This document shows positions 507 through 15,923 of a DNA stretch of 40,260 nucleotides, in pieces. The notes beneath the pieces are model-generated. The model saw only the letters and a list, made by a program, of their open reading frames with translations, was not told where the DNA came from and searched no databases. The DNA is from Erysipelotrichaceae bacterium (GTDB lineage Bacteria > Bacillota_I > Bacilli_A > RFN20 > CAG-449): NCBI GenBank assembly GCA_015059045.1, contig SVBD01000014.1, positions 1-40,260 of the forward strand, written 5' to 3'. Positions within the stretch are counted from its first letter, which is position 1. The number at the start of each line of letters is the position of its first letter. The position numbers were made by a program, and so were the translations under genes.

Positions 507-526
507 ATAAGTGAACAAGGCAACTT

Positions 527-632
527 GTTCTTCAGGGTCAGGTGAAATTCCTTCCCGGCGGTATACCCCGCGAGCGAAAGCAGAACTTGTGAGATTCAAG
601 TGGCGACAGTAAAGGCTGGATGAAAGAAGAAC
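527..632 (+). ncRNA. FMN riboswitch (RFN element)
   Basis: The leader carries the conserved RFN sequence blocks: TTCAGGGTCAGGTGAAATTC, CCCGGCGGTAT, GCGAAAGC and GGCGACAGTAAAGGCTGGATG. The closing stem P1 is GTTCTT (527-532) with AAGAAC (627-632). It lies between a sigma-A promoter and a terminator before ribU. FMN binding is therefore expected to terminate transcription and shut off riboflavin uptake when flavin is plentiful. Confidence 0.95.
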
Positions 633-658
633 AATTATTTTTAATAATAATTTTTCTA

Positions 659-13430: not shown

Positions 13431-13442
13431 AATTAATCCTCC

Positions 13443-13573
13443 TTAAAATAAAATGGGCACAGAATCCTGCGCCCATAAAAAAGTCATAATTTTAATAAGT
13501 GACATTGAGTACCAATCTAATAAATCAGATCTGGTGAGAAGCGGGCGCCTCTTCTTTCCACAAATTTATTTGC
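13443..13573 (-). ncRNA. L20-type ribosomal leader with attenuator
   Basis: The minus-strand leader of infC holds a terminator hairpin: ATGGGCGCAG (13476-13467) pairs with CTGTGCCCAT (13462-13453), then TTTTATTTT. One pair is G-U on the minus RNA but would be an A-C mismatch on the plus strand, so the hairpin is selected as minus-strand RNA. Upstream, GCGCCC (13548-13543), in the block GCGCCCGCTTCTCACC, can pair with GGGCGC (13474-13469) of the terminator arm and form an antiterminator. This is the arrangement of the Firmicutes L20 leader, where L20 binding favours termination. Confidence 0.85.
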
Positions 13574-13701: not shown

Positions 13702-13730
13702 TTGCTTATTTGTTTTATCTTTGATAAAAT
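13702..13730 (+). promoter_or_regulatory. Promoter of structured ncRNA
   Basis: TTGCTT (13702-13707), a 17-nt spacer and TAAAAT (13725-13730) preceded by TGA, an extended -10. The expected start point near 13737 falls exactly at the first base of the long closing stem of the ncRNA. The stretch 13609-13701 between this promoter and the divergent infC promoter shows nothing further that I can identify. Confidence 0.7.
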
Positions 13731-13736
13731 AAATTT

Positions 13737-13900
13737 GTCTAGATGGTGTACGCGGATCCTACATTAATATTAAGGGAATTCTTTTCATCTCTATGGTGTT
13801 GAAGGCCGGAATTAAGTTTATTCGGAATCCTAAAGTAGAGAAAGAATGCCCACTTGGTCAGGATAGGATGATCCTGAAACCATCTAGATCATATTTTTTT
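13737..13900 (+). ncRNA. Free-standing structured RNA, possibly 6S-like
   Basis: A roughly 160-nt RNA is predicted from an aligned promoter, a closed fold and a terminator. TCTAGATGGT (13738-13747) pairs perfectly with ACCATCTAGA (13879-13888), and a T7 run follows. Inside, GGG-ATTCTTT pairs with AAAGAAT-GCCC, then TCTCTA with TAGAGA, AGG with CCT, and CCG-AAT with ATTCGG, making one long rod. A separate hairpin, TCAGGAT-N6-ATCCTGA, sits on the 3' side next to a large open region. A rod with closing stem, central asymmetric bubble and 3'-side hairpin is the architecture of 6S RNA, but I see no sequence proof. No TPP, T-box, SRP or RNase P motif is present. A tkt leader element is the alternative. 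Confidence 0.65.
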
Positions 13901-13955
13901 ATTTAATATTTATATAAATATTTTTTTATGTCAAAAAATATGAAGGGAGAACTTT

Positions 13956-15923
13956 ATGAATATTGAACAATTATCTGTTGCCGCAATTAGATCATTAGTT
14001 ATTGATGGAGTTAATAAAGCAAACTCTGGGCATCCTGGTATGGCACTTGGAAGTGCACCAATTCTTTACACACTATATACTAAACATTTAGTAAGTGATC
14101 CAACTAATCCTAACTGGATTAATAGAGATAGATTTGTATTATCTGCCGGCCATGTATCAATGTTACTATATACAATGTTACATTTAGGTGGATATAAAGT
14201 ATCAATGGATGATATTAAACATTTTAGACAATTAGAGTCTATTACTCCTGGACATCCAGAACTTGGAGTAACTCCTGGAGTTGATGCATCAGCTGGTCCA
14301 TTAGGTCAAGGTATCGCTCAAGCTGTAGGTATGGCTGTAGCAGAACAATCACTTCAAGCATTATATCCACATGGAGATAGAATTATTGACCACTACACAT
14401 ATTGTTTATGTGGTGATGGTTGTTTACAAGAAGGTATTTCTCAAGAAGCAATCTCTTTTGCGGGAAGACAAAAATTAAATAAATTAATTTTAATTTACGA
14501 TGCAAACGATGTTACTTTAGATGGCGCTTTAGAATTAAGTTTCCACGAAGATGTTAAGAAGAGATTTGAAGCTAGTGAATGGAATGTTTTAGAAGTTAAA
14601 GATGGAAATGATATTTCTTCGATAGATAAAGCTATTAAAAAAGCAAAGAAAAGTGAAGAAAAACCTACATTAATCATTGTTCATACAATTATTGGTTATG
14701 GTTCAATTAATCAAGGATTAAGCAAAGTTCATGGCGCTCCTTTAGGAAAAGAAGATGGTTTAAGAGCTAAAAAGTCTTATGGATATAACTATGATGAATT
14801 TACAATCCCTCAAGAAGTTTACGATCACTTTAAAAAGAAATTTATTAACCGTGGTAAAAAAGCATTTAAAGAATGGAATGGATTATTCAATGCTTATACA
14901 TTAACATATCCGGAAGAAAGTGCAAAATTTGTTTCGGTTATGAAAAATGATGTTTCAACTTACGTCTATGATAAAGGTCCAGAATTTGAAGAAGGATTTA
15001 ACGAAGCTACAAGAAAGACAAGTCAAACACTATTAAATATTTTAAATAAATCGGTATTTAATTTAATTGGTGGATCTGCTGATGTAGCAGGAAGTGTTAT
15101 GACATCAATTAAAGGAGAAGTTGATTTCACTCCAATGACTAGACATGGAAGAAATATTAACTTTGGTATTAGAGAATTCGCTATGGCATCAATTCAAAAT
15201 GGTATGTTAATTCACGGGGGATTAAGAACATATGCTGGTTGCTTTATGGTTTTCTCTGACTATTTAAAGCCTGCAATTAGAATGGCTTCATTAAGTAATT
15301 TACCTGCTATTTATTTATTCTCTCATGACTCTATCGCAGTTGGAGAAGATGGACCAACTCATCAACCTATTGAACAATTTGCAATGTTAAGAAGTATTCC
15401 AAATAACTATCTATATAGACCATGTGACGCAAATGAATTAAAAGTTGCTTGGAAACAATCATTATTAAGTGTTGATCATCCAAGTTGTATTATTCTTTCT
15501 AGACAAAATCTTCCACTTATTGAAGGATCAAGAAGTGAAGATGTAGAAAAAGGTGGATATATCATTTCTAAAGAAAGACAAGGAGAACCTGCATTAACCT
15601 TAATTGCTACCGGTAGTGAAGTAAGTTTATGTATTGAAGTTCAAAAAGAATTATTGATGGAAGGAATTGATATCCGCGTTGTTTCAATGCCTTGTCAAGA
15701 ATTATTCTTAAAACAAGATGGTGCATATATTAAAAAAGTTTTAGGCAACAATTACGAAAGAAGAATGGCAGTAGAAATGGCATCGACTTTTGGATGGCAT
15801 AGATTTGCTCCTCACGTAATGGGATTAGATGAATTTGGTAGATCCGCTCCAGCTAAAGATGTAATTAATTTCTTCAAATTTAATAAAGAAGAAGTTATTA
15901 GAAGAATTAGAGAAATTATCTAA
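13956..15923 (+). CDS. tkt: Transketolase
   Basis: This cytoplasmic thiamine-diphosphate enzyme of the pentose phosphate pathway transfers two-carbon units between sugar phosphates. Its 655 residues match the family. Motifs are KANSGHPGMALG (21-32), HVSMLLY, GPLGQG (115-119), the ThDP/Mg motif GDGCLQEG (153-160), and in the second half the pyrimidine-domain stretch NFGIREFAMAS and DSIAVGEDGPTHQPIEQ. The start follows AAGGGAG. It has no obvious strong promoter of its own; the ncRNA terminator lies 55 nt upstream, so read-through from the ncRNA promoter or a weak local promoter is possible. A terminator follows. Confidence 0.97.
   Translation: MNIEQLSVAAIRSLVIDGVNKANSGHPGMALGSAPILYTLYTKHLVSDPTNPNWINRDRFVLSAGHVSMLLYTMLHLGGYKVSMDDIKHFRQLESITPGHPELGVTPGVDASAGPLGQGIAQAVGMAVAEQSLQALYPHGDRIIDHYTYCLCGDGCLQEGISQEAISFAGRQKLNKLILIYDANDVTLDGALELSFHEDVKKRFEASEWNVLEVKDGNDISSIDKAIKKAKKSEEKPTLIIVHTIIGYGSINQGLSKVHGAPLGKEDGLRAKKSYGYNYDEFTIPQEVYDHFKKKFINRGKKAFKEWNGLFNAYTLTYPEESAKFVSVMKNDVSTYVYDKGPEFEEGFNEATRKTSQTLLNILNKSVFNLIGGSADVAGSVMTSIKGEVDFTPMTRHGRNINFGIREFAMASIQNGMLIHGGLRTYAGCFMVFSDYLKPAIRMASLSNLPAIYLFSHDSIAVGEDGPTHQPIEQFAMLRSIPNNYLYRPCDANELKVAWKQSLLSVDHPSCIILSRQNLPLIEGSRSEDVEKGGYIISKERQGEPALTLIATGSEVSLCIEVQKELLMEGIDIRVVSMPCQELFLKQDGAYIKKVLGNNYERRMAVEMASTFGWHRFAPHVMGLDEFGRSAPAKDVINFFKFNKEEVIRRIREII

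What the first reader, a model, noticed from the sequence alone, without database searches (positions are those of the whole stretch)
13737..13900. Free-standing structured RNA with its own promoter and terminator before tkt, candidate 6S-like or new ncRNA
A promoter with extended -10 is placed so that transcription starts at the closing stem; 10 perfect pairs close the molecule and a T7 run follows directly. The interior folds into one long rod plus a 3'-side hairpin with an asymmetric open region. This resembles 6S RNA architecture, but I recognise no family sequence, and known riboswitch, T-box, SRP and RNase P motifs are absent.
Basis: partly seen in the sequence, partly recalled or inferred. 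Interest (0 to 1): 0.62.

Follow-up and report, generated by a model that had tools for sequence, protein, structure and literature searches.

The report
6S RNA gene upstream of tkt
This is an ordinary 6S RNA gene, a widespread small RNA that binds and holds RNA polymerase; standard annotation would miss it here by 0.2 bits, and in this group of uncultured Bacilli it sits just in front of the transketolase gene.

Summary
Window 13737-13889 (+) is the single 6S RNA (ssrS) gene of this 1.44-Mb Bacilli-type genome. Rfam's 6S model RF00013 scores it 46.2 bits, E 2e-8, against a gathering cut-off of 46.4, so default annotation drops it. A sister genome and named Faecalibacillus species carry the same RNA upstream of tkt with 51-63 bits, above the cut-off. 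Fourteen homologues share the architecture: closing stem, open 5' central bubble, 3' bubble hairpin, apical arm. Over 28 tested pairs, 97.4% of cells pair and 20 pairs show changes on both sides; none of 500 shuffles does as well. A TG-extended -10, 17-18-nt spacer and 6 nt to the first G precede the RNA in all 15 homologues examined. The most likely mechanism is the known 6S one (inferred): it mimics an open promoter, sequesters sigma-A RNA polymerase, and is released by templating a short pRNA. The less usual point is synteny: 6S lies directly upstream of tkt in all 15 family members checked and in three other families, often with only 17-34 nt between, so tkt may be read through from the 6S promoter (inferred).

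The parts
13702..13730 (+). sigma-A type promoter: TTGCTT, 17-nt spacer, TG-extended -10 TAAAAT
   Evidence: Sequence; same -10, TG, 17-18-nt spacer and 6-nt distance to +1 in 15 homologues
13737..13889 (+). 6S RNA (ssrS) gene
   Evidence: RF00013 46.2 bits E 2e-8; family model R1 152 bits; covariation
13738..13747 (+). closing stem, 5' strand (pairs with 13879-13888)
   Evidence: 8 of 10 pairs with changes on both sides
13879..13888 (+). closing stem, 3' strand
13749..13762 (+). predicted template for product RNA, giving 5'-GUAGGAUCCGCGUA if synthesis starts at 13762 (inferred)
   Evidence: Part of a long conserved block, consensus ATGCG.TTCCTACAT; alignment by eye to the B. subtilis pRNA GUUCGGUCAAAACUA
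13760..13773 (+). 5' side of central bubble, unpaired, A/T-rich
   Evidence: RF00013 alignment and consensus fold
13774..13783 (+). apical arm, lower helix 5' strand (pairs with 13842-13851)
   Evidence: 5 of 9 pairs with changes on both sides
13788..13793 (+). apical arm, upper helix 5' strand (pairs with 13836-13841)
   Evidence: 5 of 6 pairs with changes on both sides
13806..13825 (+). terminal hairpin of apical arm (13806-13808 with 13823-13825)
   Evidence: 100% paired, 2 of 3 pairs with changes on both sides
13858..13877 (+). hairpin in 3' side of central bubble (13858-13864 / 13871-13877)
   Evidence: A hairpin of differing sequence is predicted at this place in all 15 homologues
13894..13900 (+). 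T7 run; with the closing stem a possible weak terminator
   Evidence: Sequence; not recognised by the terminator scan; not conserved in all homologues
13956..15923 (+). tkt, transketolase, downstream neighbour
   Evidence: ORF; conserved neighbour in relatives

Best explanation
It is the 6S RNA gene of this bacterium. A sigma-A promoter makes a ~153-nt RNA that folds into a rod with an open central bubble, looking like a melted promoter. Shown here: family membership, covarying structure, conserved promoter, single copy. Inferred from established 6S biology: it binds the sigma-A holoenzyme when growth slows, competes with promoters, and on nutrient return serves as template for a ~14-nt pRNA starting near 13762, which opens the neighbouring helix and frees the polymerase. 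Also inferred: some transcripts read on into tkt.
For: RF00013 46.2 bits, E 2e-8, only significant Rfam family. A genus sister scores 51.5 and a genome of another family of the order 46.5, Faecalibacillus 62-63 bits, all over the cut-off, the latter also upstream of tkt and matched by R1. R1, built only from this family's sequences, finds RF00013-positive loci across the class, including strong 6S genes of 74-103 bits. Covariation: 20 of 28 pairs, 0/500 shuffles. Promoter and 3'-bubble hairpin conserved in 15 genomes. The invariant columns include the 5' bubble and the presumed pRNA template.
Against: The RF00013 score is 0.2 bits below the curated cut-off and the Rfam match is local (model 39-148 of 187), omitting the closing stem. 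No expression, RNAP-binding or pRNA data exist here. The pRNA start is placed by alignment only.
Confidence: 0.97

Rival explanations
1. A cis-acting leader of tkt (riboswitch or attenuator) that controls transketolase, not a trans-acting 6S RNA.
For: Same strand and directly upstream of tkt in all 15 family members with the flank available; gaps of only 17-34 nt to tkt in several genomes.
Against: RF00013 match and class-wide recognition by R1; in families f4 and f25 no tkt lies within 1.5 kb of the RNA, so tkt is not required; no Rfam riboswitch match.
Confidence: 0.02
2. A divergent 6S descendant that has lost polymerase binding and only serves as a stable 5' end or processing signal for tkt mRNA.
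For: Sub-threshold Rfam score; close coupling with tkt.
Against: The bubble and the presumed pRNA template region are among the best conserved parts, and both arms keep covarying, as expected if polymerase binding is still selected.
Confidence: 0.01

Closest known systems
6S RNA / SsrS, Rfam RF00013 (E. coli SsrS; B. subtilis 6S-1/BsrA and 6S-2/BsrB)
   Same: Rod with closing stem, asymmetric central bubble and apical arm; shares the conserved core GGTGTTGAAGGCC...GGAATCCTAAA with the RF00013 consensus; 3'-bubble hairpin of the B. subtilis 6S-1 type (PMC8876501).
   Different: Shorter (about 153 nt against 187 model positions); 0.2 bits under the Rfam cut-off; next to tkt; one copy rather than the two of B. 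subtilis.
6S RNA of Faecalibacillus intestinalis/faecis (L048, L050)
   Same: Same fold and sequence signature, also upstream of tkt; over the Rfam cut-off.
   Different: A small ORF lies between 6S and tkt there.
6S RNA of lactic acid bacteria (PMC8414754)
   Same: Canonical 6S with family-level synteny and a 3'-bubble hairpin.
   Different: Flanked there by rarA and uspA, not tkt.

Membership tests
6S RNA (RF00013) | Match to the family covariance model at the curated cut-off | tested here: inconclusive
   46.2 vs 46.4 bits, E 2e-8; orthologues in the genus and related 6S genes in other families pass: 51.5, 46.5, 62-63 bits
6S RNA (RF00013) | Closing stem, large central bubble and apical arm, conserved by covariation | tested here: met
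6S RNA (RF00013) | 3'-bubble hairpin of Firmicutes 6S-1 type | tested here: met
   Hairpin predicted in all 15 homologues with differing sequence; feature described in PMC8876501
6S RNA (RF00013) | Own sigma-A promoter, discrete ~150-200 nt RNA | tested here: inconclusive
   Promoter conserved; the RNA itself was not observed
6S RNA (RF00013) | Binds housekeeping RNAP holoenzyme and templates pRNA | not testable with these tools
   Needs biochemistry or small-RNA sequencing
Riboswitch / cis leader of tkt | Match to a known riboswitch class | tested here: not met
   Only RF00013 and a chance U6atac hit up to E 10
Riboswitch / cis leader of tkt | Association with the regulated gene across homologues | tested here: not met
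   tkt adjacent in families f1, f2, f5 and f20, but not within 1.5 kb in f4 and f25

The most novel reading that the evidence does not exclude
6S RNA and tkt form a conserved two-gene unit in these Bacilli: transketolase is made by read-through from the 6S promoter, tying the level of the polymerase-sequestering RNA to the pentose phosphate pathway that supplies nucleotides.
Probability: 0.35. Interest if true: 0.35.

Novelty: new member of a known kind. Interest (0 to 1): 0.17.

Why it matters
It settles an unannotated intergenic RNA as the 6S gene of a poorly studied Bacilli lineage and shows that the Rfam cut-off misses many 6S genes there: in the order sample RF00013 finds 17 of 196 genomes (2 over the cut-off), the family model R1 finds 36. 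The 6S-tkt neighbourhood is a small testable lead.

Tried and rejected
Single-sequence folding energy as proof of structure: weak (z -1.9) and the reverse strand is more unusual. U6atac hit: chance (E 2.8). Riboswitch or T-box: no match. A second 6S copy in the genome: none, with R1 at E up to 10 or with RF00013. Consensus promoter/terminator scan: did not list the 6S promoter or a terminator, so these rest on conservation, not on the scan. Literature for a 6S-tkt link: searches on 6S RNA with transketolase or tkt listed no paper whose title or abstract describes one (the full texts were not read).

Full report
What is there. The stretch 13737-13889 (+) lies between the divergently oriented infC operon and tkt. 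The closing stem is exact, and the promoter reads TTGCTT-17-TAAAAT with TG before the -10 and 6 nt to G13737. The T7 run begins five bases after the stem.

Rfam. At the default threshold the window gives only an FMN riboswitch at 524-635. With E-values, the stretch gives RF00013 (6S) at 46.2 bits, E 2e-8; the gathering score is 46.4. In the whole genome this is the only RF00013 match.

Homologues. A DNA search of 58 relatives found the RNA in most genomes of the genus and family. Fourteen sequences were aligned (A1). With the structure named from the window sequence, 97.4% of cells pair (shuffled 82.1), 20 pairs have changes on both sides (shuffled 11.2), and the covariation score is 0.571 against 0.240; none of 500 shuffles reaches these, and sliding one column drops pairing to 50-54%. 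The closing stem alone has 8 of 10 pairs with changes on both sides. The RNAalifold consensus agrees and adds UCC/GGA pairs on the closing-stem side of the central bubble, as in the RF00013 structure line.

Membership. The model R1 built from A1 finds the gene and nothing else at E up to 10 in the own genome, matches in 36 of 196 genomes of the order and in 55 of 149 of the class. Of 17 such loci from the order and class, 12 are recognised independently by RF00013 at E below 0.01, 4 of them over the cut-off. Five further loci from another family carry 6S genes of 74-103 bits that R1 also finds. Named Faecalibacillus records carry it upstream of tkt at 62-63 bits, over the cut-off.

Promoter and bubble. 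In 15 homologues the -10 hexamer, the TG, a 17-18-nt spacer and 6 nt to +1 recur, and the 3' side of the bubble folds into a short hairpin in each although its sequence differs. B. subtilis 6S-1 has such a hairpin in the free RNA (PMC8876501). The conserved block ATGCG.TTCCTACAT corresponds to the region that templates pRNA in B. subtilis (pRNA GUUCGGUCAAAACUA, PMC12005410); by analogy the pRNA here would be GUAGGAUCCGCGUA (inferred; the exact start could differ by a base or two).

Neighbourhood. tkt follows the RNA in all 15 loci of family f1 where the flank was long enough, and in families f2, f5 and f20; it is not within 1.5 kb in f4 and f25 (the one f6 locus has too short a flank to tell). 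The distance from the RNA's 3' end to the tkt start is 17-34 nt in several genomes and 66 nt here, leaving little room for a separate tkt promoter, and two genomes (G009, G012) lack a T run. Read-through or processing from a common transcript is likely but unproven. Literature searches for 6S with transketolase or tkt listed no paper whose title or abstract describes this. 6S synteny in lactic acid bacteria is with rarA and uspA (PMC8414754).

Host. The genome encodes seven proteins with sigma-70 region 2, so a housekeeping sigma factor for 6S to sequester and alternative ones to benefit are both plausible; their types were not assigned here.

Verdict. An ordinary 6S RNA gene, well supported; low interest apart from the sub-threshold annotation gap and the tkt linkage.

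Noticed in passing
window 13439-13562 (-): L20 leader (RF00558) upstream of infC, 54.6 bits, E 1.9e-10, just under its cut-off of 58.7; another element missed at default thresholds.
   Followed up: partly
window 524-635 (+): FMN riboswitch, 101 bits.
   Followed up: no
L152 2836-4426 (genome G238): Four tandem 6S RNA genes within 1.6 kb (82-103 bits) with a conserved core; tandem pairs in G216, G227, G205 and G254 of the same anonymous genus. That is more copies than the two described for B. subtilis (PMC8414754) or the B. cereus group (PMC7726162).
   Followed up: partly
order sample: 6S detection is patchy in family f4: most listed small genomes (about 0.8-1.4 Mb) have no match, while several of genus g22 and one g29 genome do. 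Loss or divergence beyond the model was not resolved.
   Followed up: no
window 13890-13899 and 13933-13942: Perfect 10-base inverted repeat CATATTTTTT / AAAAAATATG between the 6S 3' end and the tkt start; an almost pure A/T hairpin is possible. Seen by eye.
   Followed up: no
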